DNA of 64,000 nt from contig JACREY010000022.1 in assembly GCA_016218085.1 (NCBI GenBank), positions 1 through 64,000 on the forward strand. Direction: 5' to 3'. The position numbers and the translations under genes are program-made. Below are positions 2,320-59,074 of the stretch, piece by piece. Position 1 is the first letter of the stretch. Each line of letters begins with the position of its first letter. The DNA is from Ignavibacteriota bacterium. Lineage in GTDB: Bacteria > Bacteroidota > Ignavibacteria > Tepidaquicellales > Tepidaquicellaceae. The notes under the pieces were generated by a model. The model had not been told where the DNA came from. It worked only from the letters and a program-made list of their open reading frames with translations, and made no database searches.

Positions 2320-2489
2320 TTTTATACTCCTTAATATTAATTTATCCGCAGTAAAAAACTTTTTATCCCAAAAAAATTACTGCCGGTTTTTTATATAGTC
2401 TAACATTTTATTTCCATTTATGCAAGATAATATTTTAATGACTGAAATATTCTCTAATTATTATATTTTACTGATAATTACATAAAATG

Positions 2490-2516
2490 AACCCTTCATT
2501 TTATTAATGAAGGGTT
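2490..2516 (-). terminator. Probable intrinsic terminator of mgtE
   Basis: An 11-bp perfect stem (aacccttcatt / aatgaagggtt) with a 5-nt loop lies just past the mgtE stop codon. On the minus strand it is followed by TTTTAT, a modest U-tract. On the plus strand T-rich sequence also follows, so it may work in both directions. Confidence 0.6.
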
Positions 2517-2540
2517 TAATAAATTTTTATTTTTTTATTT

Positions 2541-3920
2541 TTATAGAAGTGTGCCGGTGAGTAAAAGAGTAGCAACCGTAAAATAAATTATCAAACCTGT
2601 AACATCTACCATAGTTGCCACAAACGGAGCAGATGAAGTTGCCGGGTCCAGTCCGAATCTTTTTAAAACAAATGGAAGCATCGAGCCGGATAATGTCCCC
2701 CACATCACGACACCGATTAAGGTAAAAAATAAAGTCAATCCAATCAGAAACCAGTGCTCCCCATAAATATTTGAAAAAGAATTCCATACAAGAATTCTTA
2801 AGAAACCGATAATTCCAAGAACCAATCCTAGCAATAAACCTGATATAATTTCCCTTCTCATCACCCGCCACCAGTCTATCAATTTTATTTCACCTAAAGC
2901 CATGGCACGAATGGTTAATGTTGCAGCCTGTGAGCCTGAGTTTCCTCCGCTCGATATAATCAGTGGAATAAACAACGCAAGTACCACAGCTTTCGCAATT
3001 TCATGCTCGAAAAATCCCATAGCAGTTGCAGTTAACATTTCTCCGAAAAATAATATTACCAGCCACCCTGCACGTTTCCTTACCATCTGAAAAAGAGGTA
3101 CCGTTATATAAGGTTCATCCAGGGCTTCCATACCTCCGAACTTCTGAATATCTTCAGTGGCTTCTTCTTCGATTACGTCAATCACATCATCTGCTGTTAC
3201 TATTCCAACAAGATAGTTTTCATCATTTACTACGGGAATTACATAAAGGTCATATTCCTTGAACATTTCAACTGCTTTTTCCTTGTCGTCCATTACATTC
3301 AGACTTACATAAGTATTATTCATAATCTCTTCTGCAATCGAATCAGGTTTCGCAAGCAATACTTCTTTAATGGTTATTTCGTCCAGAATTTTTCCCGCGG
3401 AATCTGTAGCAAAGATTGTATCTATATATTCGACTTCTTTGCCTATTTTTCTGATATGGCTTAATACTTTTTCTATTGTCCATTGGGATTTAACCGCAAT
3501 GAAATCAGGTGTCATAATTCTTCCGATGCTGTCTTCAGGGTAACCCAGCAGCTTTACGGCTATTGCCCGCTCTTCAGGCGATAAAAGCCGTACAAGCTCT
3601 TTTACAACAGGCCCCGGAAGCTCTTCGAGAAACTCTGTTCTGTCGTCGGGAGACATTTCATTCAGAATCTCGGCAAGCTCCTCTTTTGCGAGTGATTTTA
3701 AAAGCTCTTCCTGAATATCAAATTCCAGATATTCGAATGTCTTGTATGAATTTTCTTTTGGTAAAATCCTGAATACTATTGCCCTGTCTTTTTCCGGGAT
3801 GTCTGATATTATGTCTGCCGTTTCGGAAGGATGCATTTCGGAAAAAATTTCCTTTAATGTAATCCAGTTGCGTGCATTTATTAACTGCTCTATTTCGGGT
3901 TGGATAAGCTGTCCAATCAT
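2541..3920 (-). CDS. mgtE: Magnesium transporter MgtE
   Basis: MgtE is an inner-membrane Mg2+ channel gated by intracellular Mg2+. At 459 residues it matches the usual ~450. An acidic helical N domain (about 1-130) is followed by a CBS pair (about 135-255) and about five membrane helices (about 285-459). The pore region carries the family signature SSGGNSGSQAAT, and the last helices contain DPATSSAPFVATMVDVTGL with the conserved ion-site Asp. The ATG at 3920 has AAGGAG upstream. The gene follows the TIGR02757 gene but is separated from it by ~110 bp, so it may have its own promoter. No M-box-like riboswitch could be recognised in that gap. Confidence 0.95.
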   Translation of the reverse strand: MIGQLIQPEIEQLINARNWITLKEIFSEMHPSETADIISDIPEKDRAIVFRILPKENSYKTFEYLEFDIQEELLKSLAKEELAEILNEMSPDDRTEFLEELPGPVVKELVRLLSPEERAIAVKLLGYPEDSIGRIMTPDFIAVKSQWTIEKVLSHIRKIGKEVEYIDTIFATDSAGKILDEITIKEVLLAKPDSIAEEIMNNTYVSLNVMDDKEKAVEMFKEYDLYVIPVVNDENYLVGIVTADDVIDVIEEEATEDIQKFGGMEALDEPYITVPLFQMVRKRAGWLVILFFGEMLTATAMGFFEHEIAKAVVLALFIPLIISSGGNSGSQAATLTIRAMALGEIKLIDWWRVMRREIISGLLLGLVLGIIGFLRILVWNSFSNIYGEHWFLIGLTLFFTLIGVVMWGTLSGSMLPFVLKRFGLDPATSSAPFVATMVDVTGLIIYFTVATLLLTGTLL

Positions 3921-4030
3921 TGTAAAACTCCTTATGGGAAAATATAATCTATATTTTACATCGGTGTTTAATTATTAATTAAAAAATGAATTAGAAACGT
4001 AAGATAAAAATTAATGATGTCAATTTCAAT

Positions 4031-4795
4031 TTAATTTGAAGTATCGCACAACTGAATATCATCGTGGCACAGTGCAAAATCATATTTCACCGGGTCTTTA
4101 GCATCATACTTTTTCAGCTTTTCTGTCAGTTCCACTGCGAATTTCATATCGCAGGATTTTCTTTTTATGAGTTTAAATTTTCTTGCCATCCTGTAAACGT
4201 GAATATCCACGGGCATCAGCAATTTCGATTTGTCGATTTCCTTCCCCCATATCCCGGTATCAATTTCATCTCTCCTCACCATCCACCTTAGAAATAAATT
4301 CAGTCTCTTGCAGGTTGAATTATTCCTCACGTCCGGCATCAGGTAATCATATCCCATCAGGTTCTTTAAATAACTTTTTCTCATCGAATCTGAAAAAAAT
4401 GTCAGCGCATTTAAAATATTTTTATCTTCATCGGAATATCTGACTTTGAATAAATTAAGCAGTGAACCGTATTCGCCGAAATTTACTTTTATATTCTGAA
4501 GAAGATTAATCAAATCAAAATGATTGTTAAACCTGTAATTCATCCCTTCAAAAAGTTTTACATCTTTCTTAAAATTAAAACTCATTATGAATAGATAAGG
4601 TCTGTATTCAATCCTGCTGAGAAATTCTTCGATGAATCTGTTTATTACTCCAATCTGACCGTAGGAATAACAGGCGGAAACAAGCCCGGTAATCTCAATA
4701 TCTCTTTTATCCTCATACTGATGAAGAAACCTGACAGGGTCTTCAGCCGAATGTATTGATTTGTACTTTTTGTATAAAGAATCTAAATTTATCAA
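4031..4795 (-). CDS. TIGR02757 family protein (DUF2400)
   Basis: The protein has 254 residues. It is recognised from family segments: DPVRFLHQYEDKRDIEI near the N-terminus, then KRLNLFLRWMVRRDEIDTGIW, LLMPVDIHVYRMARKF and DPVKYDFALCH. The family is distantly related to helix-hairpin-helix DNA glycosylases, but no enzymatic role is established and none is claimed here. The only usable start is a TTG at 4795; an in-frame stop lies ten codons upstream and no ATG is available. It begins 4 bp after the miaA stop, so it is almost certainly co-transcribed with miaA. The family is typical of Bacteroidetes and relatives. Confidence 0.85.
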   Translation of the reverse strand: MINLDSLYKKYKSIHSAEDPVRFLHQYEDKRDIEITGLVSACYSYGQIGVINRFIEEFLSRIEYRPYLFIMSFNFKKDVKLFEGMNYRFNNHFDLINLLQNIKVNFGEYGSLLNLFKVRYSDEDKNILNALTFFSDSMRKSYLKNLMGYDYLMPDVRNNSTCKRLNLFLRWMVRRDEIDTGIWGKEIDKSKLLMPVDIHVYRMARKFKLIKRKSCDMKFAVELTEKLKKYDAKDPVKYDFALCHDDIQLCDTSN

Positions 4796-8795: not shown

Positions 8796-11273
8796 TTATT
8801 CTTCAGTATGCTCTTCTAGCAATTTCTTCTTCCCGTTCTGAGATTTATCATCACTACCAAATCTGTAAGTAAAAGTAAGAAAAGCCATTCGGGAATTTCT
8901 TTTACGGTAATACTCTGCATAAAAAGTGTTATCCGATATCTCAGACTTGAATTTCGATGTGTTAAGAATATCTATGACTTTAAAAACAACGGTAAGCTTT
9001 TTATTGAAAAAATCTTTTTTGATTGCAATATCCAGGTAATAATCAGGCTCATTAAAACCTTGAGCAAGTGTAACCCGCGCCCCTCCCATAACATAGTTTT
9101 GGTCTCCAATACCCATTACACCTGAGGTTTTGCCCTGGTAATTAAATAAAAATTGAACTTCAAAATTACCCGGTAATTTAAAACCGCAGTTTATCTTCCC
9201 TACCCAGCTTTCGTATTCGCTGTTTTTACTTTCATTTCCGGCGTATGCAACTTTTAAATAAGTCAGGTTTGAATTAAAGTACCACCATTTCAAAATATTT
9301 CCGTTTAATAATAATTCCACACCGTATGTATTCGAATGCGCAAGATTTTTATATGTAAAATATGATGTACCGTTATTGTCGGCATAGATGTACCTTGTCA
9401 TTACATCATTGATATTTCTGAAAAACAAGGATGTTGTTACCGATAAAACAGGAAAATAGTAATTATGCGTCAGCTCAAAAGAATTAATATATTCAGGCTG
9501 TAAATCCGGATTTCCGAATCTCAATACCTGCGGGTCAGCGTTATTTACAAACGGATTTAACATAGCAGTACCAGGTCTGTTTATTCTTCGGGAATAATTA
9601 AATGCAATTTCAGATTTATTTGTAATTATTTGCTTAATATACAGGCTCGGGAAAATATCAATATAATTCTTTTCTTTAAAAAAATTTATATTTAATTGAT
9701 TTGCCTTTGAATTAGTCTGTTCTATCCTTATTCCTGCCTGATATGATAAATTCCTATATCCCCCCGAATAAATTCCATAAACCGAATTGATGTATTCCTT
9801 ATATTCAAAATCATTTTTCATAGAAATCTTATTTTCCCAATTACTGCTTGCATAATCATAATAATTCACGTTAAAATAAGAATCGTTTTCCCTGTATATT
9901 CCTTTAATTCCTGCTTCGATTTTACCTATATTCTCCAATCCTAATGTATAATCTCCCTGAACGCTGAAAATTTTAAGTCTGCTCTCCGTAAAGTCATTTT
10001 CGAGATATGGCAATGTATCTTTTGGGGTATTATCGGTGTTAAAAAAAGATTGTTTCATTCTCAAATCCAAATCATCTTTCGAATAGCTGAATTGAGAAGC
10101 AATATTAATAAAATGTTCTTTTGAAAAAGTTTTTTTGTAAAATGCCGATAAATCCAGACCGTTCCCGCTTATATCAAAAATATTTTTTTTCCCGTAAAAT
10201 AAAACGGGATTGTATTCTATGTCATAATTTCTATAAAACGTATTCTCTTCCCTCGTTCTTGCCCTGTTATTAAAAGCCATAGATATATTAAATTCGTTGT
10301 TTTTATCCGGAAAAAAACCGAAGGCAAGATTCCCCGTATGGCTTTGCAATCTGTTAGCTACATTATTTACCTGATTTAAAAAATGCAAAGTATCATTCAA
10401 AAAATTCGTAGTGCCGGTTGTTCCGTTTACGGACATATTAAACAATCTAAAATTATATGATGCCGTTAATGAATATTTATTTCTTTTAATATTGGCATTT
10501 GCCGAAAAATTATACTTATCCTGAGTACCTGCATTAAGTGATATGCTGAAATTATTTTTTGATTTTTCCGTTTCGGTATTTTTCTTCAAAACAATATTCA
10601 CAATTCCGGTAATTCCTTCGGATTCGTATTTTGAAGAAGGATTATTTATTATTTCAATTGATTCTATCATATTTGCGGGGATCAGGTCTAATGAAGCGTT
10701 CGGGTCCGAACTTAAAATTCCGGATTGATTACCGTTTATCAAAAATACAACGTTTGAATTTCCCCTTATGCTTATTCTGCCGTCACTGTCCATAGTTACC
10801 GATGGAATGCTTTTCAAAACATCGCTTGCAGTTCCGCTTTCGGAAATCATATTTTTTTCTACGTTGTAAACCTTCATATTGTCTTTATTCTCAAAATAAT
10901 ATCTTTCTGCATTTACCTCTATAGTTGCCGTTGAATCCAAAGAAGGGTTAAGAAATATTTTTCCCAAATCAACCTGCGGAGTGTTTCCGTTAACTTTTAT
11001 TTCCGAACTATAATCCGAATAGCCTATAAAACTTATAATGATTTTATATTTGGAATATCCGATATCCCTTAATTCGAATTCGCCTGATTTATTTGCAGAG
11101 GTTCCCTGCCTGTTTGTCGAATCCTTAACTGAAATTATTTTTATTATAGCATTTTCTATCGGCTTCTTATCTGCGGAATCCAGCACAACTCCTTTAACCA
11201 AAGTCTGGCTGAATAAAACGACCGGGAAAAAAAATATAAATATTAGATTTCTGAGCATAAATAAATTTTTCAT
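8796..11273 (-). CDS. TonB-dependent receptor-like outer-membrane beta-barrel protein
   Basis: The protein has 825 residues and a signal peptide ending near FSQ (about residue 23). A carboxypeptidase-regulatory-like domain follows (about 25-105; VKGVVLDSADKKPIENAIIKI). Next is a TonB plug (about 125-235) containing SDVLKSIPSVTMDSDGRISIRG and SIEIINNPSSKYESEGITGIVNIVLKK. The rest is a long barrel of the outer-membrane beta-barrel family 3 type, ending in LTFTYRFG plus a charged tail. It probably imports a substrate through the outer membrane, but the substrate is not indicated by neighbours. It is a single gene, preceded by ~500 bp without genes. Confidence 0.9.
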   Translation of the reverse strand: MKNLFMLRNLIFIFFFPVVLFSQTLVKGVVLDSADKKPIENAIIKIISVKDSTNRQGTSANKSGEFELRDIGYSKYKIIISFIGYSDYSSEIKVNGNTPQVDLGKIFLNPSLDSTATIEVNAERYYFENKDNMKVYNVEKNMISESGTASDVLKSIPSVTMDSDGRISIRGNSNVVFLINGNQSGILSSDPNASLDLIPANMIESIEIINNPSSKYESEGITGIVNIVLKKNTETEKSKNNFSISLNAGTQDKYNFSANANIKRNKYSLTASYNFRLFNMSVNGTTGTTNFLNDTLHFLNQVNNVANRLQSHTGNLAFGFFPDKNNEFNISMAFNNRARTREENTFYRNYDIEYNPVLFYGKKNIFDISGNGLDLSAFYKKTFSKEHFINIASQFSYSKDDLDLRMKQSFFNTDNTPKDTLPYLENDFTESRLKIFSVQGDYTLGLENIGKIEAGIKGIYRENDSYFNVNYYDYASSNWENKISMKNDFEYKEYINSVYGIYSGGYRNLSYQAGIRIEQTNSKANQLNINFFKEKNYIDIFPSLYIKQIITNKSEIAFNYSRRINRPGTAMLNPFVNNADPQVLRFGNPDLQPEYINSFELTHNYYFPVLSVTTSLFFRNINDVMTRYIYADNNGTSYFTYKNLAHSNTYGVELLLNGNILKWWYFNSNLTYLKVAYAGNESKNSEYESWVGKINCGFKLPGNFEVQFLFNYQGKTSGVMGIGDQNYVMGGARVTLAQGFNEPDYYLDIAIKKDFFNKKLTVVFKVIDILNTSKFKSEISDNTFYAEYYRKRNSRMAFLTFTYRFGSDDKSQNGKKKLLEEHTEE

Positions 11274-11780
11274 TTTACAAATTAAGATTATCGTAATTGT
11301 ATATAAACAGCAATTATAATGCCTAATGATAATTTAATTATAGAGGCTAATGGAAGGATTATAAAATATTTTTAGTCAGTTTTGTCGAATCTTCGTCAAT
11401 TATTTCTTAAATGCCTCTGCACTTTAAAGTTGAAAAACCGTTAAAGGAATAATTTCAATTTCACATTATCTATTGAATCTTCTGTTTATAGTTATTCTTC
11501 TTTTCCAAAACCTTTTGTTTTCTATTTATGATATTTATTTACCTTGGTATAATCGTAGAAGCAAATGAAAAAATTCAAAAAAAGGGAGTGGGGAAAGGTT
11601 ACACAAATCTAAAAAAACAAATATATTATAAATTTGAACCTCCCCCCCCACGTTCCGTTTTATATCCTATTTTCGCTGTCATTTCCCACTATTTTGTATT
11701 GAATTTGTAAAAACTTGTAAATTTATGTCAACTATCTTGAAATTCATTTTTAACATTCTTAGGTTTCAAAAAAAATCATT
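11274..11780. other. Intergenic region between divergent genes
   Basis: This 507-bp AT-rich stretch lies between the divergent receptor and lipoprotein genes and should contain both promoters. It holds the second copy of the A-rich/G-run repeat (11563-11596) and, ~45 bp later, a run of C (about 11641-11650). A 60-codon frame at 11528-11710 has no signal peptide, domain or ribosome site that I can support. I see no RNA gene. Confidence 0.5.
11563..11596 (+). repeat. A-rich/G-run direct repeat, copy 2
   Basis: The same orientation and the same 20-nt core as the copy at 8744-8775, again followed by a G-rich purine tail (aaagggagtggggaaagg). It lies about 290 bp upstream of the receptor start. 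Confidence 0.45.
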
Positions 11781-12206
11781 ATGAAAAAATTAATTGTAAT
11801 TATTAGTTTTCTTTTTTCTTCATTATTTTTATCCTGTTCCGCTCCCGAATATTGCCAAAATGATTATTCCTATATTATGAACTGTCCGCCTGATTCGGAT
11901 GGAATCTACAGACCTTATATAATTTCTCTTTCTCTCGATTCTCCTTTCAATGCTTTCTTTGATATTAAATGTGAAAGTGTATATGCTTTTAATTTAAATG
12001 ATACTATTACAAATGAAAACTATAACGCATTTTTAGCAATCAAAAATTTTAAAGTACTGCAATTTGAGTTTGTTTCTAAAAAATTCAGTTTTGCATATGA
12101 AACTTATTTAATGGACGATTTTTATACCGAAATTCCCATGAATTATGTTTCTTATATTGTTTTTTACGGTAGAAATATGTATTTCTCAGAAAATCAAAAA
12201 AAATAA
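11781..12206 (+). CDS. Hypothetical lipoprotein
   Basis: The protein has 141 residues and a lipoprotein signal (MKKLIVIISFLFSSLFLSCS); the lipobox Cys is near residue 19. The mature part contains CQNDYSYIMNCPPDSDG, with two more Cys early in the chain. It then has a beta-rich, aromatic-rich sequence without any motif that I recognise. Very low GC resembles the surrounding intergenic DNA. It is probably anchored in the inner or outer membrane facing the periplasm. The coding status rests on the convincing signal peptide and the start right after an AT-rich promoter-like stretch. Confidence 0.65.
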   Translation: MKKLIVIISFLFSSLFLSCSAPEYCQNDYSYIMNCPPDSDGIYRPYIISLSLDSPFNAFFDIKCESVYAFNLNDTITNENYNAFLAIKNFKVLQFEFVSKKFSFAYETYLMDDFYTEIPMNYVSYIVFYGRNMYFSENQKK

Positions 12207-21126: not shown

Positions 21127-22374
21127 ATGAAAATAAAACAAAAAAATACTCTAATTGCAATTCTAACGATTGGTTTTCTTCTCAGATTGTGTTTTTTAAT
21201 ATTTTTTTGTAACCTTGAAAAAGATTTTTATTGGGAATTTGGTAATATTGCAAAAAATCTTCAAGCTGGAAATGGATATTCGCTTTATTATTTTAGTAAC
21301 GATTCTCTAAAACATGATTTCAATCCGGTTAAAAAGCCATATCCTTCTGCCTTTATGCCGCCTGGATATGTTTTTTATATATACCCGTTCCTTGAAATAA
21401 ATAGTGTTGAAATAAGAAATATTTTTCTGCTTTTATCTCAAATTATATTAAGTTTACTGTTAATTTTTGCTTCTTATTTTTTTGCTGCAAAATATTTTTC
21501 TGAGCGAATAGGTATTATAACTGCTTTAATAATTTCTGTATTGCCTGAATTTATTTATTCAAGTTTGACATTTAATGCTGTTATTCATTATCACTTATTA
21601 ATTATCCTTTCGCTCTTCTTTATTATGGATAATAATTTTTGCTCTGATTATAAGAAAATTGTGATTTTTTCAGTAATATCAGCACTTATTTTGTTTTTCC
21701 GAAGTGAGTATTCTGTTTTTCTATTTTTTATATTACTATTTTATTTTTTTAAAAAGCAATATAAAGTTGTTTTTTGTATTACTTCTATCATTTGTGTACT
21801 TTATTCACCCTGGATTATTAGAAATTATATTGTTTTTGGAGAGTTTGTTCCTTTTACAACAAGCGCAGGACTTAATTTTTATCGAGGACATAACAAGGAG
21901 GCAATCGGCGATTGGGGCCCAATCGAATTTGTTAGAGAAATAAGGGATAAAAGTGAAAGCAAGAATTTTGAAACAGCTTATAATAAATCCTATTTTTATA
22001 AAGCAATAGAATCTGTGAAGACAGATTATAATAAAGAAATTAAAAATATTTTTATTAAAATATATAATTTTTGGATTATAAACCCTGATGACGAAAGATC
22101 TTTCAATTTTTTTTATTTATTTCCATCATTAGTCATATTGGGTCTGTCTATTTTTGGTTTCTTCAAAACCTTCTCTTATTCAAAATATAGTTTCATATAT
22201 TTATTTTTGTTTTACTCTACTTTAATAGCAATTGTTTTTTTTGCAATTCCAAGATACCAGATAATGATGAAAATAGCGATAATTCCTTTCGCAGCATTTA
22301 CTATAGATTATTTTTTGTTAAAAAAGAAAAAATCAATAGGGTTTTTTACCAAAAAGGAAATCGATAATAATTAA
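21127..22374 (+). CDS. GT39-like membrane glycosyltransferase
   Basis: The protein has 415 residues and about 9-10 hydrophobic helices. The first periplasmic loop has acidic and aromatic residues (EKDFYWEFGNIAKNLQAGNGY) and later PSAFMPPGYVFYIYP, the pattern of polyprenyl-phosphate-dependent ArnT/PMT-type glycosyltransferases, where the early acidic residue is catalytic. It is expected to move a sugar from an undecaprenyl carrier to a lipid or protein outside the inner membrane. The base composition is visibly more AT-rich than its neighbours, with many A/T-ending codons, which may mark transfer or simply its Phe/Ile/Tyr-rich composition. Confidence 0.78.
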   Translation: MKIKQKNTLIAILTIGFLLRLCFLIFFCNLEKDFYWEFGNIAKNLQAGNGYSLYYFSNDSLKHDFNPVKKPYPSAFMPPGYVFYIYPFLEINSVEIRNIFLLLSQIILSLLLIFASYFFAAKYFSERIGIITALIISVLPEFIYSSLTFNAVIHYHLLIILSLFFIMDNNFCSDYKKIVIFSVISALILFFRSEYSVFLFFILLFYFFKKQYKVVFCITSIICVLYSPWIIRNYIVFGEFVPFTTSAGLNFYRGHNKEAIGDWGPIEFVREIRDKSESKNFETAYNKSYFYKAIESVKTDYNKEIKNIFIKIYNFWIINPDDERSFNFFYLFPSLVILGLSIFGFFKTFSYSKYSFIYLFLFYSTLIAIVFFAIPRYQIMMKIAIIPFAAFTIDYFLLKKKKSIGFFTKKEIDNN

Positions 22375-22393
22375 TACGAAAAAATAATAAGAA

Positions 22394-23827
22394 ATGCTCA
22401 AAGTATTCTGGTTTAGAAAAGATTTACGGTTGAAAGATAATAAAACCCTCTTGGAATTCATTGATTCCGTAGGCGTAGATGATTCTTTTCTTTTCCTTTA
22501 TATAAAAAACAAAAACTCGTATAAATATTTCGGCGAAAAAAGGATTGCATTTCTTCATGAATGCATTTTTGAGCTGGGTATTGAACTCGAAAAAAATAAA
22601 TTAAAATTAAATGTCCTAAGCGGTTCTTCTGAAGAGATTTTCAGGAACTTAATAAATAAATTCGGAAAAACAGAAGTATTTGCCGGAAGGCAGATAGAGC
22701 CATTCTGCATTTCAAGGGATAATAAAAATAAAAAGTTGCTCGAAGAAAATTCAGGCAGACTAAATTTAATTGAAGATATAAACATGGTTCCTTTTAATGA
22801 ATCGGTTAAAGATAACGGAACACCTTACACAGTTTTTACTCCGTTCAAAAATAAGTTTTTAAGGATTCTTAGTCCGGTTCATTATGCAGAATCCAAAGTG
22901 AATCTTTCAAAACTAAACAGGAAAAACGAATTACAGCTGAATAATAATTTTGATTTCGAAAGTGAATATAAAAAGTTTGATAAATCGGGTTTTCTGAAAG
23001 GCGGAAGAAGTAATGCAGTTGTTCTTTTAAATTATTTCTTCAAAAGTAAAATAAAGAATTACGCAGTTGACCGCGACTTCCCTGCTATTGAAGGTACAAG
23101 CCTGCTTTCGGCGCATCTGCATTTTGGGACAATAAGCATAAGAGAGTGTTTTCGTGCATACAAAGAAGCCGCAAAAGATACTAAGGGCACTGATGAAATA
23201 TATAAATGGCGAGAAGAGCTAATCTGGCGGGAATTTTATTATAGCATCACATATCATTTTCCGCACGTGATTAATTCTGCTTTCAAAAAAGATTATGATA
23301 AAGTTAAATGGAATTACGATAAAAGAATGTTTAAGTTGTGGTGCGAAGGAAAAACAGGATTCCCCATTGTGGATGCCGGAATGCGCCAGTTGAACAAAGA
23401 AGGCTGGATGCATAACAGGGTAAGAATGATTGTTGCAATGTTCCTCACCAAAGATTTACTGATTGACTGGCGTTGGGGAGAAAAATATTTTGCAGAAAAA
23501 CTTATTGACCTGGATTTCTCGTCCAACAACGGCGGATGGCAGTGGTCTGCTTCAACCGGATGCGATGCTCAGCCTTATTTCAGAATTTTTAATCCGTACC
23601 TGCAAAGTAAAAAATATGATTCGGACGGAATTTATATAAAACGGTATGTACCTGAATTGACAAATGTAAAAACAAAATATATACATAACCCTTCCGAAAT
23701 GCCTGCGGCAGAACAGTCTGCATGCGGTGTAATTATCGGAAATGATTACCCGGCTCCGATTGTTAACCATTCGGAAGTAAGTAAAATCGCTATTGAAACT
23801 TTTAAAAACATAAAAAATAAACCATAA
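22394..23827 (+). CDS. phr: Deoxyribodipyrimidine photolyase
   Basis: It repairs UV-induced pyrimidine dimers using light and FADH-. The 477 residues start with VFWFRKDLRLKDN, and the N-terminal alpha/beta antenna-binding domain covers about 1-130. The FAD-binding C-terminal domain has WREELIWREFYYSI, GFPIVDAGMRQLNKEGWMHNR, then DFSSNNGGWQWSASTGCDAQPYFRIFNP, the class I photolyase/cryptochrome signature including the Trp residues for electron transfer. It sits 19 bp after the glycosyltransferase stop. Confidence 0.93.
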   Translation: MLKVFWFRKDLRLKDNKTLLEFIDSVGVDDSFLFLYIKNKNSYKYFGEKRIAFLHECIFELGIELEKNKLKLNVLSGSSEEIFRNLINKFGKTEVFAGRQIEPFCISRDNKNKKLLEENSGRLNLIEDINMVPFNESVKDNGTPYTVFTPFKNKFLRILSPVHYAESKVNLSKLNRKNELQLNNNFDFESEYKKFDKSGFLKGGRSNAVVLLNYFFKSKIKNYAVDRDFPAIEGTSLLSAHLHFGTISIRECFRAYKEAAKDTKGTDEIYKWREELIWREFYYSITYHFPHVINSAFKKDYDKVKWNYDKRMFKLWCEGKTGFPIVDAGMRQLNKEGWMHNRVRMIVAMFLTKDLLIDWRWGEKYFAEKLIDLDFSSNNGGWQWSASTGCDAQPYFRIFNPYLQSKKYDSDGIYIKRYVPELTNVKTKYIHNPSEMPAAEQSACGVIIGNDYPAPIVNHSEVSKIAIETFKNIKNKP

Positions 23828-54107: not shown

Positions 54108-54542
54108 ATGTTCGGACAAAAAAATAAGGAAATATCATCATCCATCAGCACAACATCGCGCTCCTCTGATTCATCTCAGATAAAAACCTTAATCAGCGAA
54201 GGATGCCGCTTCGAGGGAAATCTTTTCTCCCCTTCCAATACACGCATAGACGGATATGTAACCGGAAACCTTACCGGTGAAAACGGGCTAATCATAGGCG
54301 ACAAAGGTAGTATCGTAGGCGATATCAGTGCTATAGAGGCAGTGATTTACGGAACTGTACGCGGTAACATAAAAGCCCATAAACTCGAAATCAAAGGAAC
54401 GGGAAAAATTCTCGGCGACGTAGTGGTTGACCATATCATTATGGAATATGGCTCTCACTTCAACGGCAACCTGAAAATGAACGAACCCAAGGAAGACTTG
54501 TCCAAAGCCGCATTCGATTTGCCTGAAGAAAAGAAAGAGTAG
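54108..54542 (+). CDS. Bactofilin family cytoskeletal protein
   Basis: The protein has 144 residues. It polymerises without nucleotide into filaments under the membrane. The hydrophilic N-terminus (about 1-28) precedes the beta-helix core: LISEGCRFEGNLFSPSNTRIDGYVTGNLTGEN and repeated G-x-I/V-x-G turns up to KILGDVVVDHIIMEYGSHFNG. A charged tail follows. It is co-transcribed with the M23 peptidase. Confidence 0.93.
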   Translation: MFGQKNKEISSSISTTSRSSDSSQIKTLISEGCRFEGNLFSPSNTRIDGYVTGNLTGENGLIIGDKGSIVGDISAIEAVIYGTVRGNIKAHKLEIKGTGKILGDVVVDHIIMEYGSHFNGNLKMNEPKEDLSKAAFDLPEEKKE

Positions 54543-54649
54543 AAATAATAAATAAAAAGTAATGTTATTGCATTACACTAAATAATACTGACAATGATAA
54601 AATAAAATTGAAAAATCAATTATATTTGTATATATTACTAAAACAAAAT

Positions 54650-54811
54650 ATGAAAAGAGAATATAACATAATAATAGAAAAAGATTCCGAGGGATATTAC
54701 ATTGGATATGTACCTGAACTTAAAGGATGTCATACTCAGGCAAAAACAATAGATGAACTGATGAATAGGATGCAAGAAGTGATTGAGTTATGTGAAGAGG
54801 TAACTCATTAA
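54650..54811 (+). CDS. Orphan short HicB-like protein
   Basis: The ATG at 54650 gives 53 residues; a TTG at 54608 would add 14 non-conserved ones. The sequence KREYNIIIEKDSEGYYIGYVPELKGCHTQAKTIDELMNRMQEVI is the HicB/UPF0150 fold. There is no HicA gene beside it, and it lacks a DNA-binding tail. It may be a remnant or a stand-alone regulator of a HicA elsewhere. Confidence 0.75.
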   Translation: MKREYNIIIEKDSEGYYIGYVPELKGCHTQAKTIDELMNRMQEVIELCEEVTH

Positions 54812-55520
54812 AATACACAAAAACCCACTACAACTCGGTCCCGTTTACCCTCCGGATCAAGTCCTCTTTGGGAACGCACAACACTCAATAAAAAAACAAA
54901 GACACAAAATTTCTCAAAATGATAATTGTAACGTTACACAGTGTTATATAAATTAAATCTCTGATTATTATTTAATAAGGCATTTTTTCAAAAAAGTGTT
55001 ACAGTTTTGTAACATTTTTGTTTTTCTGCTTGCAAATTTTAAAGAAAATGCCCTTTTTCAAGGATGACTCCTAAACTGTTACACATTTTTGTACCAGTTT
55101 TGTTCTCCTGATAGTAAAAAAATATATGCTTCAGATATTTAAGAAAAGAAATCCATATTTAAAAGAACGGATACTATCCCATATTAATATATGGTATATG
55201 GATTTAAAAAGCAAGGGAGGATTTAGTTTAAAAGTTTATAAAGTTTATAAAGTTGTGAAGTTTGTTAGGTTTGTAAAGACTATCGGGAGTTCAAAGAATG
55301 GAGTCTCACCAACATAACTAAAAACCCGCTCTGTCATTCCGGTGCGCAACGGCGGATCATTGACGCGTACACAGTGATTTTTAAAGGATAATAGAAAGAG
55401 CGGCTACACTGTAACCCATCACTCCACCTATATTGTCACCCCCGCATGCTGAACGTTCTGTGCGAAATCCCGACCTGTCGGGACTTTAGGCGGGGGTCTC
55501 GTTCTTGATTTTGTTATTTT
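54812..55520. other. Structured non-coding region
   Basis: A 709-bp stretch between the orphan HicB gene and the 3' end of the CHAT-like gene. It holds a 12-bp palindrome tgtaacgttaca (54927-54938), a nested inverted repeat (ggcatttt 54979-54986 with aaaatgcc 55045-55052, enclosing tgttac 54997-55002 with gtaaca 55009-55014), another tgttac at 55078, aagtttata tandem repeats (about 55225-55280), and GC-richer palindromes at 55326-55403 and 55438-55497. A 63-codon frame at 55126-55317 is mostly repeat and is not called as a gene. Confidence 0.6.
55438..55497. repeat. Nested palindromic element
   Basis: The outer arms acccccgc (55438-55445) and gcgggggt (55490-55497) enclose an inner hairpin tcccgac-ct-gtcggga (55468-55483). 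It lies just beyond the CHAT-like gene stop on the minus strand. There is no proper T-run, so it looks more like a dispersed palindromic repeat than a terminator. Confidence 0.65.
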
Positions 55521-56234
55521 TTATCTTTTATTATCCTTTTTGATCCTTGATAATATTTTCATTAACTTTTCTTTCTTTTCAAGTTCATTATTTAAAAATT
55601 CTATTTCTTTTTCTAAACTTTCTGAATCAGGAGTTAAAGAATACTTTCTAAAATTTGATTTTGGAATTAATTTTAGATCAATAATATCTTTTCTTTGGAA
55701 ATAATTGATATCCATTAAAAAAGTATTTGATAGTTTTTGTAAATTAAATATTATTGCATCTTTAGGCATTTTATTTTCATTAGAATCAAATATTAGAGTA
55801 TAAAAAGAAGCCCAAATTACAGCAGAATAATGGAAATAAATTGATTCACTAAAACCGGCTATTGAAAGACATTCTGTTTTATTAAATATTTCTTTTGCAA
55901 AATTATCATTTGCAATTAAACACGATGAAAAGAATACTCTTTTTCCTTTGAGTTTTGTTCCTAAGATTGTTGCAAATTCTGAATATGAAATTCTGTCATA
56001 TGTCAAATCAATATATTCTTCATTTGCGTGACATGAAAAATGAAGATATTTATATTCACTTTTGACAAATTCATTTAAAATATTTATTAATTCTTTTTTT
56101 GTTCTAATGTAATGATATAAAGTCTTCTTTTTATAATAATTCAAGATATTTTTTATAATACCTCCTTCCATTAACTTTTCATTTTCGTTTTCTCGAGTTA
56201 ATGACTCTATAATAAATACATTCGGATCACCCAT
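55521..56234 (-). CDS. CHAT/caspase-like protein
   Basis: The protein has 237 residues. The core (about 60-150) reads YLHFSCHANEEYIDLTYDR with His69, then LKGKRVFFSSCLIAND with Cys105, then SIAGFSESIYFHYSAVIW. This is the His...Cys arrangement and strand pattern of CHAT/caspase-like cysteine peptidases, in a minimal form without TPR repeats. The C-terminus (about 205-237) is a charged coiled coil. It is the last gene of a three-gene minus-strand cassette, 50 bp after the HEPN-like gene. It would be expected to cleave a protein target when triggered. Catalysis is inferred from the motif only. Confidence 0.7.
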   Translation of the reverse strand: MGDPNVFIIESLTRENENEKLMEGGIIKNILNYYKKKTLYHYIRTKKELINILNEFVKSEYKYLHFSCHANEEYIDLTYDRISYSEFATILGTKLKGKRVFFSSCLIANDNFAKEIFNKTECLSIAGFSESIYFHYSAVIWASFYTLIFDSNENKMPKDAIIFNLQKLSNTFLMDINYFQRKDIIDLKLIPKSNFRKYSLTPDSESLEKEIEFLNNELEKKEKLMKILSRIKKDNKR

Positions 56235-56284
56235 ATTATTAAATAATTAAGTAATTAAATATTATTAAATTTAAATTATAAAAA

Positions 56285-57103
56285 TTAATTTGCGAATTTT
56301 GTATTTCGAAATACTATTTCATTAAGATCAGAAAAAAAAGACAGTAAATTGTATTCGGTAATAGGAGCATCACCAGGATGTGCACATTGACATCTTAAAT
56401 CAAAACATCCTTTTAATCTAGTATGCTGATTACTATCAATTAAACCGATCCCTTCTATAATCCATAGGACTATTGTATCAAAAACTTCACGAAGTTCACT
56501 CAAAGAATTTATATTTTGAGTAGAATTGAATCTCTTAAATCTTCCTACAGTTTTGCTTGATAATGAAGCTGAAGTTATATTAAATTTTTCAAACCCAATT
56601 TTTTCAATTTTTTTCTGGATTCTATCAATAGCAGCACACCAACCTAAAATTACTGCTGCTCTATAATAACCATTAGTCGCACATTTTATAGCTTCTATCA
56701 AATACTCGTTTTCTTCTTGATTCGGAAGCCCTCCAAGAATTTTAGTTAGTAATGTTTCATTTGATGGAGTCGTTGGATTTTTCTGCAAAGGTATTATTAA
56801 TTCATCCCTAAATTTTTTTAATATATTTTTCAATGAATCTTCATAACTAGTTTTCAAATTATTTGGTGCACTTATTTTTATTAATCTACTAAAATTATCT
56901 GAATAATAATCCAAAACATTCTTTTCTAAAGACGATATTGCATATAATTCATCTGCTAATCCTGAAAACCAATATTCACCAATATGTTCAGCTTCTTTTC
57001 TTATCTCTTTTTTTGAAATAGATTTTGCTTTTTCTTTAGATATTTCTTTTTTTAGAAATTGCAATCTTTCGTGTAACGATTTTATTTTATCAGTATTAAT
57101 CAT
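56285..57103 (-). CDS. Putative HEPN-domain protein with RxxxxH motif
   Basis: The protein has 272 residues. The N-terminal half is helical and charged. The C-terminal half resembles HEPN domains: NGYYRAAVILGWCAAIDRIQKKI, then a long helix, then LRCQCAHPGDAPITEYNLLSFF with Arg237 and His242 in the R-x4-H spacing used by HEPN ribonucleases. The upstream gene overlaps it by 4 bp (ATGA), so the two are coupled. It probably acts as an RNase effector. The family is not recognised by name. Confidence 0.65.
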   Translation of the reverse strand: MINTDKIKSLHERLQFLKKEISKEKAKSISKKEIRKEAEHIGEYWFSGLADELYAISSLEKNVLDYYSDNFSRLIKISAPNNLKTSYEDSLKNILKKFRDELIIPLQKNPTTPSNETLLTKILGGLPNQEENEYLIEAIKCATNGYYRAAVILGWCAAIDRIQKKIEKIGFEKFNITSASLSSKTVGRFKRFNSTQNINSLSELREVFDTIVLWIIEGIGLIDSNQHTRLKGCFDLRCQCAHPGDAPITEYNLLSFFSDLNEIVFRNTKFAN

Positions 57104-57711
57104 TGTAATGTTTTAATTATTTCAGCTAAACGGCTTTTTCCTTCTGATGACAATGAAATGTTTGGATTATTTTTATCATATGTTTTAAAATTATCAAACA
57201 TGGTCTTATTATATTTAAAATATGTTGCAAAATTTGCAGGGTCATAACATTTTCTCTGAACTGTTTCTTTCCTGACATCTTCGCCATTAAAGTGAAAACT
57301 TCCGATTTGAATAGCATTTTTTAACGATTCCAATAGAGCTATCCTTAGTTGACTTTCAGATGCTTTTGTAGTTTTTAGATCGTCATATAATGGTTTTAAT
57401 ATTCCATTTTCCAAATAAAATATCTGGCTAATTTGTTCAATCGATACACTTTCCTTTTTCATAAATTGTTTAACTTTAACATGTAAATCTTTTTCTTGAA
57501 TATTATCTTGCTTTGATTCTGAATGAGTTTCTTCATTGCTATTTGTTGACCTTTTCTCAATTGTGTTTTCGTCGCTATTTCCTAGTTTAGGTCTACTAAT
57601 TTCTAATAAATAATTTGAAAGTAATAACTCAAAACATTTTTCTTGCAAATTATCAGGACATTCTTTTGCAATTTTAGCAAATTCATGAACTTTATTTTTT
57701 ATGTTATCCAT
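57100..57711 (-). CDS. Hypothetical protein, first gene of the HEPN/CHAT-like cassette
   Basis: The protein has 203 residues and no signal peptide or membrane segment. A helical N-terminus (about 1-40) is followed by a hydrophilic Ser/Asn/Glu-rich linker (about 42-75). The C-terminal globular part (about 76-203) contains AIQIGSFHFNGEDVRKE, YDPANFATYFKYNKTMFD and a final ISLSSEGKSRLAEIIKTL. I do not recognise the family. It overlaps the HEPN-like gene by 4 bp. It could be a sensor, adaptor or antitoxin of the cassette, but sequence gives no direct clue. Confidence 0.7.
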   Translation of the reverse strand: MDNIKNKVHEFAKIAKECPDNLQEKCFELLLSNYLLEISRPKLGNSDENTIEKRSTNSNEETHSESKQDNIQEKDLHVKVKQFMKKESVSIEQISQIFYLENGILKPLYDDLKTTKASESQLRIALLESLKNAIQIGSFHFNGEDVRKETVQRKCYDPANFATYFKYNKTMFDNFKTYDKNNPNISLSSEGKSRLAEIIKTLQ

Positions 57712-57822
57712 AATGTGATTAATTTATTTATTAATATAATTTATTATATTATTATTGTTAATTTACAATTTATAAATTTAATTTACAATTAAGATTTATA
57801 TTTCCCCTATTGTTTTTGCACA

Positions 57823-57855
57823 ATAAAAAAAGGGATTCGCTTTCACAAATCCCTT
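57823..57855 (-). terminator. Intrinsic terminator of the HtrA gene
   Basis: The stem aagggatt / aatccctt with a ~10-nt loop lies 28 bp past the protease stop. On the minus strand it is followed by a run of T. Confidence 0.88.
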
Positions 57856-57883
57856 AATATAATTGCTTAATAATTAAGTATTT

Positions 57884-59074
57884 CTATTCCAATTTCATCT
57901 CTATCATCTTTTCGCTTCCGGAGCGGAGGACTTTTAATTTTACGACATCCCCTTTTCTCATATCGTTGATTGCGAAAACCAAATCCTGCTCGTTGCGGAT
58001 TTTTTCATCGTTGCAGGCGATAATCACATCTTCTACTTTCAGTCCTGCCCTGTCCGATACTCCGCCTCTCTGAATCTGCGTAACTATTACGCCGTTCTTA
58101 TCATTGAGTCCGAGATATTTTGCAATCTGGTCGTCAATAGCCTGAATCCTGAATCCTACATTCGAACTGCGTTCAATCTTTCCGCCGGATTTTAATTCTT
58201 CCATAATTTTCTTAACGCGGTTAATCGAAATCGCAAAGCCCACGCCGATGCTTCCCTGGCTGAACTGGCTTCCCGTGTAAATAATCGTATTCATTCCGAT
58301 TACGTTTCCTTCCGCATCCACAAGCGGTCCGCCTGAATTTCCGGAGTTGATTGATGCGTCTGTCTGAATCATATCTTTATAAACCCTGTTGCCTTCGGCG
58401 CTGACTTTCATATTTGTTGCGCTGACTACGCCGACCGTAACGGTAGGCTTGTCATTTATTTCAAAAAGTCCGAACGGATTTCCAAGTGCAATCACCCACT
58501 CGCCTATTATGATGTTATCGGAGTTTCCGAAATTAATAAACGGAAGTCCTTTTTTATCAATCTTTAAAAGTGCTACGTCTGATACGGGGTCGGAGCCGAT
58601 TAGCTTCGCAGTTACGGTTTCGCCTGTTGTCAGGGTTACTGAAATTTTTGTCGCATTCCCTGCAACGTGGTCATTGGTAAGAATATATCCGTCTTCCGAA
58701 ATTATATAACCCGAGCCGAGTCCTCTTACAACCTGCTTTTGCGGACCCATATCACCGAAGAACTGTCTGAAAAACGGGTCATTGGAAAACGGGTCCTGTA
58801 CAGTTCGGACTTCTTCCACGTTTATGCCGACTATGCACTTCGAAACTTTTTCGATTGCTCTGGTAATTGCGGTCTGCCTTTCTTCCGAAACGTTTTGGTT
58901 CAATTGCTTCTTATCAGTCTGCGTAAGGCTCTGGTTTGTATTGCCTTTATTTTTAAAAAATTTTGTAAGGACAATTCCGCCGAGTAGCATTCCCGCTATC
59001 AGCGTGAATATAATTACGAGCGGAAGAATAATTTTGTACCTGTTCATTGGATTAACTTTTGTCATTGTTTCCAT
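57884..59074 (-). CDS. HtrA/DegP-like periplasmic serine protease
   Basis: The protein has 396 residues. One N-terminal membrane anchor (about 14-37) and a Gln/Asn-rich linker precede the trypsin-like domain with His136 (TNDHVAG), Asp166 (VSDVALLKI) and Ser247 (GNSGGP). A single PDZ domain (about 300-395) follows, containing GVIVTQIQRGGVSDRAGLKVEDVI. The DegS-like layout (anchor, protease, one PDZ) fits a role in envelope quality control or stress signalling. It follows the transketolase gene by 11 bp. Confidence 0.93.
   Translation of the reverse strand: METMTKVNPMNRYKIILPLVIIFTLIAGMLLGGIVLTKFFKNKGNTNQSLTQTDKKQLNQNVSEERQTAITRAIEKVSKCIVGINVEEVRTVQDPFSNDPFFRQFFGDMGPQKQVVRGLGSGYIISEDGYILTNDHVAGNATKISVTLTTGETVTAKLIGSDPVSDVALLKIDKKGLPFINFGNSDNIIIGEWVIALGNPFGLFEINDKPTVTVGVVSATNMKVSAEGNRVYKDMIQTDASINSGNSGGPLVDAEGNVIGMNTIIYTGSQFSQGSIGVGFAISINRVKKIMEELKSGGKIERSSNVGFRIQAIDDQIAKYLGLNDKNGVIVTQIQRGGVSDRAGLKVEDVIIACNDEKIRNEQDLVFAINDMRKGDVVKLKVLRSGSEKMIEMKLE

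What the first reader, a model, noticed from the sequence alone, without database searches (positions are those of the whole stretch)
55521..57711. Three-gene cassette: unknown protein, HEPN-like RNase candidate and minimal CHAT/caspase-like protease
Seen: three minus-strand genes, the first two overlapping by 4 bp and the third 50 bp later, embedded in very AT-rich DNA between housekeeping genes and next to an orphan HicB gene and palindromic repeats. The second protein has R237-x4-H242 in a HEPN-like context. The third has His69 and Cys105 in a CHAT-like context. Known: HEPN RNases and CHAT proteases are recurrent effectors of phage defence and cell suicide (for example CHAT partners of type III-E CRISPR). 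Inference: the three form one defence or toxin module with two different effectors, or an RNase with a protease trigger, and the 203-residue protein as sensor or inhibitor. I do not know a described system with this exact set.
Basis: partly seen in the sequence, partly recalled or inferred. Interest (0 to 1): 0.82.

Follow-up and report, generated by a model that had tools for sequence, protein, structure and literature searches.

The report
Two-gene RNase module beside CHAT gene
A small DNA-binding-like protein and an RNA-cutting-like protein form a two-gene unit found together in distant bacteria and probably guard against phages, while the protease-like gene beside them here is mostly not a fixed partner.

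Summary
The three genes are real and correctly placed. The first two form a conserved two-gene module: in all 11 loci with the full-length HEPN protein (Acidobacteria, Deltaproteobacteria, Bradyrhizobiaceae, Bacteroidetes) the 203-aa homologue lies directly upstream, and the two families diverge in step (r = 0.93). Protein 2 is an N-terminal helical domain plus a HEPN domain, with R-x4-H-P in 11 of 11. Protein 1 is a helical hairpin, a disordered linker and a predicted winged helix. In five further loci the same N-terminal domain carries other C-terminal parts (TIR-like in 2, pP_pnuc nuclease in 2, untyped in 1), each behind a small upstream gene. The libraries and papers searched describe no such family. 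Closest is the HEPN + winged-helix pair of type IX retrons, but this genome has no reverse-transcriptase match. Protein 3 is CHAT-related (H69 and C105 align with a genuine CHAT domain). Its family usually stands alone; a CHAT gene lies just downstream of the pair in 2 of 9 assessable loci (here and L049). The 3.3-kb AT-rich block is an insertion between bactofilin and htrA; relatives show the empty site. Most likely an abortive-infection or toxin-antitoxin-like module; function untested.

The parts
57100..57711 (-). gene A (P0001, 203 aa): N-terminal helical hairpin (residues 2-39), low-confidence linker (about 41-70), C-terminal predicted winged helix (114-203); constant partner of gene B
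   Evidence: AF2 model mean pLDDT 84.9; best VIA match AF1382 2qvo Z 8.1, rmsd 2.5 over 77 residues, list dominated by winged-helix proteins; homologue directly upstream of gene B in 11 of 11 loci
56285..57103 (-). gene B (P0002, 272 aa): N-terminal helical domain (residues 1-112) plus C-terminal HEPN domain (131-272)
   Evidence: AF2 model mean pLDDT 87.3; HEPN AF0298 2hsb Z 10.3, rmsd 2.5 over 111 residues; phrog_27609 E 1.8e-8 and PD-T7-3 E 0.0025 on the HEPN part
56378..56395 (-). R237-x4-H242 motif of the HEPN domain, followed by P243-G244
   Evidence: invariant in 11 of 11 rows of A4
56768..57103 (-). N-terminal helical domain of gene B, the constant part found with other C-terminal parts elsewhere
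   Evidence: profile-profile match A6 against A9 over 109 columns, probability 97.4, E 1.2e-11; five further loci with other C-terminal parts
55521..56234 (-). gene C (P0003, 237 aa): CHAT-like cysteine-protease candidate, H69 and C105; probably a neighbour rather than a fixed part
   Evidence: DUF6642 E 1.6e-4, below its cut-off; H69 and C105 invariant in 5 of 5 aligned sequences; family profile hits a Pfam CHAT domain in L049
54543..57883 (.). inserted block between convergent bactofilin and htrA; holds genes A, B, C and the HicB orphan
   Evidence: in 4 of 4 relatives whose fetched stretch matches both flanking genes, the matched parts lie 119-165 bp apart; low GC
54608..54811 (+). orphan HicB-like gene in the same inserted block; no evidence that it belongs to the module
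   Evidence: Pfam HicB_lk_antitox E 1.9e-6; tblastn finds it only in this genome's own loci among the 83 loci held

Best explanation
Genes A and B form a two-gene, laterally moving effector module. Gene B is a HEPN ribonuclease carried on a constant N-terminal helical docking domain. Gene A has a helical hairpin, a flexible linker and a DNA-binding winged helix. It most likely docks on gene B's N-terminal domain, holds the RNase silent, and acts as the sensor or autoregulator. When phage infection disturbs gene A or the nucleic acid it is bound to, the HEPN dimer is freed, cuts RNA (most likely tRNA) and stops growth of the infected cell. Shown by computation: the conserved pair, co-divergence, motif conservation, predicted folds, other C-terminal domains on the same docking domain, and insertion at this site. 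Inferred: A-B contact, DNA binding, inhibition by A, the trigger, RNA cleavage and phage defence. Gene C is a CHAT-like protease candidate in the same insertion block and is usually not a partner.
For: Adjacency: 11 of 11 loci with full-length gene B, found with gene B alone as query, have gene A directly upstream. In the nine measured the spacing runs from -4 to +7 bp. Co-divergence: distance matrices of the two families (11 rows each) correlate at r = 0.93, and 0 of 10,000 permutations reach it. HEPN: R-x4-H-P in 11 of 11; fold match to AF0298. Gene A: winged-helix matches. Other C-terminal parts behind the same N-terminal domain: TIR-like (P0015 TIR_2 E 0.016, below cut-off; P0007, 43% identical to it, had no TIR hit) and pP_pnuc_1 (P0008 E 1.2e-13; P0017 E 3.4e-9). 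Defence genes nearby: Shedu SduA E 1e-30 and PDC-S11 E 2.2e-19 at L048; SIR2-like at L049; type II restriction enzyme 27 bp downstream at G218. Insertion with empty sites in relatives. A HEPN + winged-helix pair is reported to work this way in retron-Kva2 (PMC13405049, abstract start and passages seen).
Against: No experiment. Foldseek found no PDB match at E <= 0.001 for either model; pTM is only 0.57 and 0.64. Winged-helix Z of about 8 is within the range the tool calls common. The small partners of the TIR-like and nuclease versions were not shown to be homologous to gene A (hhalign probability 3.3). Defence neighbours are clear at only 3 of the related loci, and the window's copy sits among housekeeping genes. 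Gene-A relatives in seven genomes of one other family stand next to housekeeping genes, and 0 of those 7 has a gene-B match (one search had no positive control), so the gene-A domain can also serve a different, possibly chromosomal role.
Confidence: 0.6

Rival explanations
1. A plain type II toxin-antitoxin (addiction) pair: gene A is a DNA-binding antitoxin that represses its own operon and blocks the HEPN toxin; no phage sensing.
For: Small two-gene operon, partner gene first, overlapping or nearly overlapping genes, DNA-binding-like fold with a flexible linker, HEPN toxin candidate.
Against: TIR-like and nuclease domains on the same docking domain are more typical of defence modules (my judgement). 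Nearby Shedu, SIR2 and R-M genes at three loci. The two readings overlap and were not separated here.
Confidence: 0.25
2. One reading: all three genes form one defence module in which the CHAT protease and the HEPN RNase act together, for instance the protease cuts gene A to release the RNase.
For: Same strand, 50-bp gap, one inserted block. In L049 a 582-aa protein with a Pfam CHAT domain (E 9.9e-11) lies 807 bp downstream of the pair on the same strand, so a CHAT gene is close downstream in 2 of 9 assessable HEPN-pair loci.
Against: The gene-C family profile, run on the ORFs of 16 pair-locus files (L041-L049, L014, L032, L033, L035, L072-L074; L014 and L046 are the same place, and L041 and L042 end just after the pair), hit L049 alone: 15 of 16 had no match at E <= 1. 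Four of four other relatives of gene C examined have no profile match to genes A or B in the fetched stretch. The two CHAT genes belong to different architectures.
Confidence: 0.15
3. Gene B is a non-catalytic, MtlR-like HEPN regulator, and A and B form a transcription-control pair rather than a toxin system.
For: MtlR (HEPN superfamily) is the top Foldseek row for gene B, although E is 1.0; gene A looks DNA-binding.
Against: The R-x4-H motif is invariant in 11 of 11 at as little as 22% identity, which argues for catalysis; behind the same N-terminal domain other loci carry pP_pnuc nuclease or TIR-like parts.
Confidence: 0.1

Closest known systems
Type IX retron (retron-Kva2), PMC13405049
   Same: Operon with a HEPN RNase and a winged-helix protein; the passages seen report the HEPN dimer sequestered and freed by a phage protein, giving tRNA degradation and growth arrest.
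   Different: No reverse transcriptase: 0 RVT_1 matches in the window's genome, and in the 14 genomes searched none on the contig of a pair, although 5 of 14 have one on another contig and some pair contigs are short. HEPN here carries an N-terminal helical domain and a canonical R-x4-H, which the paper says Kva2 HEPN lacks.
PD-T7-3 / BxaP (DUF4145-type HEPN defence proteins; PMC9519451, PMC10799925)
   Same: Remote similarity restricted to the HEPN part (PADLOC E 0.0025 for P0002 and 2.8e-5 for P0005).
   Different: PD-T7-3 is called a single-protein system (PMC10799925 passages); here there is an N-terminal domain and a constant upstream partner.
HEPN-MNT toxin-antitoxin pairs
   Same: Two-gene unit with HEPN toxin; a HEPN-MNT structure, 8xeh, is in the Foldseek list at E 6.1, not significant.
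   Different: The partner is a predicted winged helix, not a minimal nucleotidyltransferase (the MNT partner is recalled knowledge).
CHAT proteases (Pfam PF12770; TPR-CHAT of type III-E CRISPR, Borvo)
   Same: Gene C has the His and Cys positions of a CHAT domain. CHAT in Borvo and type III-E is listed in PMC10952713 (passage).
   Different: Gene C is a small protein (237 aa) that Pfam's CHAT model does not report and that is below the DUF6642 cut-off; no Cas-like gene was noticed beside it among the ORFs.

Membership tests
HEPN superfamily | R-x4-6-H catalytic motif | tested here: met
   R237-x4-H242, invariant in 11 of 11
HEPN superfamily | HEPN helical fold | tested here: met
   AF0298 HEPN 2hsb Z 10.3, rmsd 2.5 over 111 residues for residues 131-272; Foldseek itself not significant, E 9.6 for 2hsb, and Z under about 13 can be a common arrangement for helical models
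HEPN superfamily | homodimeric RNase activity | not testable with these tools
   needs biochemistry
Type IX retron | reverse transcriptase in the operon | tested here: not met
   0 RVT_1 matches in the window's genome; in 14 genomes searched none on the contig of a pair, 5 of 14 have one elsewhere; 3 of 14 control genomes ring
Type IX retron | HEPN and winged-helix proteins encoded together | tested here: met
   predicted folds of adjacent genes; homology to the retron proteins not tested
CHAT protease | His-Cys dyad in conserved strand-turn contexts | tested here: met
   H69 and C105 in 5 of 5 sequences and aligned to L049's CHAT domain
CHAT protease | Pfam CHAT model above its cut-off | tested here: not met
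   no CHAT hit for P0003 up to E 1; 3 of 4 relatives hit at E 0.033, 0.18 and 0.12, all below cut-off, the fourth not at all
CHAT protease | caspase-like fold | not tested
Type II toxin-antitoxin | toxin neutralised by direct binding of the partner | not testable with these tools
   needs co-expression and pull-down
Anti-phage defence system | enrichment next to known defence genes | tested here: inconclusive
   clear at L048, L049 and G218; not seen at the window; bulk scans of 103 neighbours do not name the matching protein; no background rate measured
Known systems in PADLOC-DB 2.0.0 | significant match of the gene A or gene B architecture to a listed system | tested here: not met
   no match up to the limits used for the gene-A proteins scanned (P0001, P0009, P0012, and P0010, P0011, P0016, P0018, P0020 of the variants); among gene-B proteins the only matches at E <= 0.01 are to C-terminal parts

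The most novel reading that the evidence does not exclude
A broad, undescribed family of reverse-transcriptase-free immune modules: a small winged-helix sensor protein paired with one constant helical docking domain that carries interchangeable killers (HEPN RNase, TIR-like, pPIWI-associated-type nuclease and at least one untyped domain), spread over several phyla. In some lineages, here and in L049, it is reinforced by a CHAT protease.
Probability: 0.35. Interest if true: 0.8.

Novelty: new variant of a known kind. Interest (0 to 1): 0.6.

Why it matters
If true, it separates the HEPN + winged-helix switch from retrons and shows it working without msDNA, with the docking domain as an exchangeable socket for different effectors. 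It would give a compact two-gene system of about 1.4 kb in which sensing, restraint and killing can be dissected, and a search handle (the docking domain) for further effectors. It also cautions against reading three adjacent genes in one island as one system.

Tried and rejected
Plasmid and phage records held no relative of gene B at E <= 0.01 and plasmids none of gene A; P0007 and P0008 had none in plasmids at E <= 0.001; gene C had two plasmid records and no phage record. Viral-contig scans with A1 and with P0003 gave no confirmed relative. Sequence searches of the PDB with A6, A7, A9 and P0003 gave nothing credible. Rfam found nothing at gathering score in 54500-58000. The order-level searches around G218 and G369 added no new locus.

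Dropped before counting pairs: G522 (a HEPN part joined to a tyrosine recombinase, L034), G379 and G519 (only the HEPN part matches, in 442- and 432-aa frames), G081 (weak match, E 2.2e-4, in a frame that reads to me as an unrelated protein), and the 364 of 373 pattern stretches that tblastn did not confirm. Dropped from the gene-C relatives: G212 (E 8.8e-4, only residues 180-229).

Considered and rejected: retron (no RT match); the HicB orphan as antitoxin of the HEPN (opposite strand, no tblastn match in the other loci held); a universal three-gene system. The fold rows for gene B's N-terminal domain are a generic helical-bundle crowd (Csm2, talin, receptors), and I draw no kinship from them. 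PADLOC scans of neighbours covered 103 of the 120 non-window ORFs listed (50, 53; 17 mostly short or overlapping ones and the 9 window neighbours were left out). They show only the first 25 of 83 and of 72 families, do not name the matching protein and include generic helicases, so I used only the proteins scanned by name.

Papers: passages only were seen of PMC3710099, PMC10799925, PMC9519451, PMC12839542, PMC10853773, PMC13405049 and PMC10952713, plus the starts of abstracts in listings; the others were seen as search listings. 'Not described' rests on nine searches of an open-access library and on Pfam, NCBIfam, PHROGs and PADLOC. NCBIfam and PHROGs were asked only about the window's own four proteins.
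Full report
What is there. The window is the first 64 kb of a 148-kb contig (G000:C16). Three minus-strand ORFs stand at the given coordinates with the stated overlap and gap, and the motif residues are as stated. Genes A, B and C have GC 0.27, 0.275 and 0.225 against 0.41-0.44 in the neighbours htrA, bactofilin, M23 and TonB-type genes.

It is an insertion. I fetched the htrA region of nine relatives from the same family. In the four where the stretch also has a bactofilin match (L075, the same genus, and L077, L079, L080), htrA and bactofilin are convergent and the matched parts lie 119-165 bp apart. In the window 3,341 bp lie between the two genes. In the other five there was no bactofilin match in the stretch (one, L076, ends soon after htrA). 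Gene B had no match in the 28 other family members searched, one of them of the same genus. So the block 54543-57883 is a gain, probably recent.

Genes A and B are one unit. Gene B alone as query (alignment A1) found nine loci among genome contigs at 36-61% identity: Acidobacteria (L042, L043, L044, L047), Deltaproteobacteria (L045, L048), Bradyrhizobiaceae (L049), a Bacteroidetes MAG (L046 = G218) and an unassigned bacterium (L041). All nine have the gene-A homologue directly upstream, as do G369:C49 (L032) and the window: 11 of 11 loci with a full-length gene B. Four other matches (G522, G379, G519, G081) cover only part of gene B and are not counted. In the nine loci measured, spacing is -4 to +7 bp. 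Pairwise distances in the two families correlate at r = 0.93, Spearman 0.87, with 0 of 10,000 label permutations reaching it; related hosts contribute to this figure. The module is sporadic: 7 of 391 genomes of the class matched A1, of which 4 (G000, G218, G369, G453) carry the N-terminal domain. With N-terminal profiles, 3 of 395 phylum genomes and 4 of 171 genomes of the class of G745, two of them already known, matched at E <= 0.01.

Gene B is an N-terminal helical domain plus HEPN. AF2 gave mean pLDDT 87.3 and pTM 0.57. Residues 131-272 align to the HEPN protein AF0298 (2hsb) with Z 10.3 and rmsd 2.5 over 111 residues; Foldseek itself found no PDB match at E <= 0.001. R237, H242, P243 and G244 are invariant in 11 of 11 rows down to 22% identity. 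PHROG 27609 (E 1.8e-8) and, weakly, PD-T7-3 match the same part.

Gene A. AF2 gave mean pLDDT 84.9: helical hairpin 2-39, a stretch of very low confidence at 41-65, and a confident part from about 71 to 203. VIA rows for 114-203 are mostly winged-helix proteins, best 2qvo with Z 8.1. This is suggestive but within the range the tool calls common. Relatives, several with AT-hook-like RGRPPK linkers (motif recalled), stand next to lysA- or recJ-like genes in seven genomes of another family (gene names are my reading of the translations). 0 of the 7 has a gene-B match, in a call without a positive control. That fits DNA binding for the domain and shows it has a second, non-module life.

Swapped C-terminal parts. 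The N-terminal domain of gene B recurs in five loci with another C-terminal part, each behind a 172-208-aa gene on the same strand: G453 (L033) and G780 (L073) with a TIR-like part (P0015 TIR_2 E 0.016, below cut-off; P0007 is 43% identical to it but had no TIR hit of its own; the PDB search with both found nothing); G369:C15 (L035) and G218:C31 (L072) with pP_pnuc_1 (E 1.2e-13 and 3.4e-9, both above cut-off); and G866 (L074) with an untyped helical-looking part ending in RN-x2-HP. The shared N-terminal domain between the HEPN and TIR-like versions is supported by profile comparison: probability 97.4, E 1.2e-11 over 109 columns. The small upstream proteins of these five align with each other at 19-41% identity to the first, but homology to gene A was not shown (hhalign probability 3.3).

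Gene C. Pfam DUF6642 at E 1.6e-4 is below its cut-off. Relatives were found in a Paracoccus plasmid, a Salmonella plasmid record and two genomes of the phylum, G320 and G173; a third genome match, G212, covers 50 residues only and was dropped. H69 and C105 are among seven invariant positions in the five aligned sequences. A profile of these five, run against 1,033 ORFs of at least 100 aa of the loci held (the relatives' own loci left out), hit one ORF besides the window's own gene: L049 9579-11327, E 2.5e-6. Pfam reads that ORF as CHAT at E 9.9e-11, and H and C align. So gene C is CHAT-related, though Pfam's CHAT model does not report it directly. Profiles of genes A and B found nothing at E <= 1 in the ORFs of the four relatives' stretches of 4-12.5 kb.

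Is gene C part of it? Counting loci with at least 2 kb after a HEPN-type pair (the window, L043, L044, L045, L046/L014, L047, L048, L049, L032), CHAT is close downstream in 2 of 9: here at 50 bp, and in L049 at 807 bp with a 160-aa gene and a doubtful 67-aa ORF between. L041 and L042 end 17 and 146 bp after the pair. The five variant loci have no match either. In the others the next ORF differs: a type II restriction enzyme (G218, 27 bp), a GIY-YIG-like protein (L045, 66 bp, E 0.0053 and below cut-off), a membrane-type protein by eye (L032, 79 bp), or opposite-strand ORFs. This is against a fixed three-gene system, but two CHAT genes of different architecture beside so rare a pair is more than I expected and is not explained.

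Function. Defence genes stand near L048 (Shedu E 1e-30, PDC-S11 E 2.2e-19, a TIR/cyclase-like gene E 1.5e-9), L049 (SIR2-like, just upstream on the other strand) and G218 (restriction enzyme E 1.9e-55). I saw none at the window, and no named one at the rest. The nearest worked example is retron-Kva2, where a winged-helix protein, msDNA and RT cage a HEPN RNase that phage protein D5 releases (PMC13405049; abstract and passages only). The window's genome has no RVT_1 match. Of 14 genomes searched 5 have one, none on the contig of a pair. I therefore propose an RT-free analogue: A restrains B, infection lifts the restraint, B cuts RNA. A plain toxin-antitoxin reading remains open.

Novelty. The nine paper searches and the family libraries used show no description of this pair or of the docking domain, but the paper library is open access only and PADLOC-DB is from 2023. 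I rate it a new variant of a known kind.

Noticed in passing
L034:6884-8275: A HEPN domain like that of gene B is fused to the C-terminus of a tyrosine recombinase (phage integrase E 1.2e-14) in G522; I would call this fusion unusual.
   Followed up: partly
L049:9579-11327: 582-aa protein with a long N-terminal part and a C-terminal CHAT domain (Pfam E 9.9e-11), downstream of a HEPN pair and a SIR2-like gene.
   Followed up: partly
L015-L021 (gene-A relatives at about 6.6-8.3 kb): Proteins of 230-256 aa with a gene-A-like C-terminal domain, several with RGRPPK-type linkers, next to lysA/recJ-like genes in one family; perhaps a chromosomal DNA-binding protein.
   Followed up: partly
window 21127-23827: A second AT-rich stretch: genes of 415 aa (GC 0.254) and 477 aa (GC 0.349), which may be another acquired block.
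   Followed up: no
L054:1-12001: The gene-C relative in G320 lies among large genes that look like nucleases or other defence genes by eye (for example 1796-4693 and 9201-11999).
   Followed up: no
L074:2287-3099: A version of the module with an untyped C-terminal part ending in RN-x2-HP, which may be another HEPN-like family.
   Followed up: no
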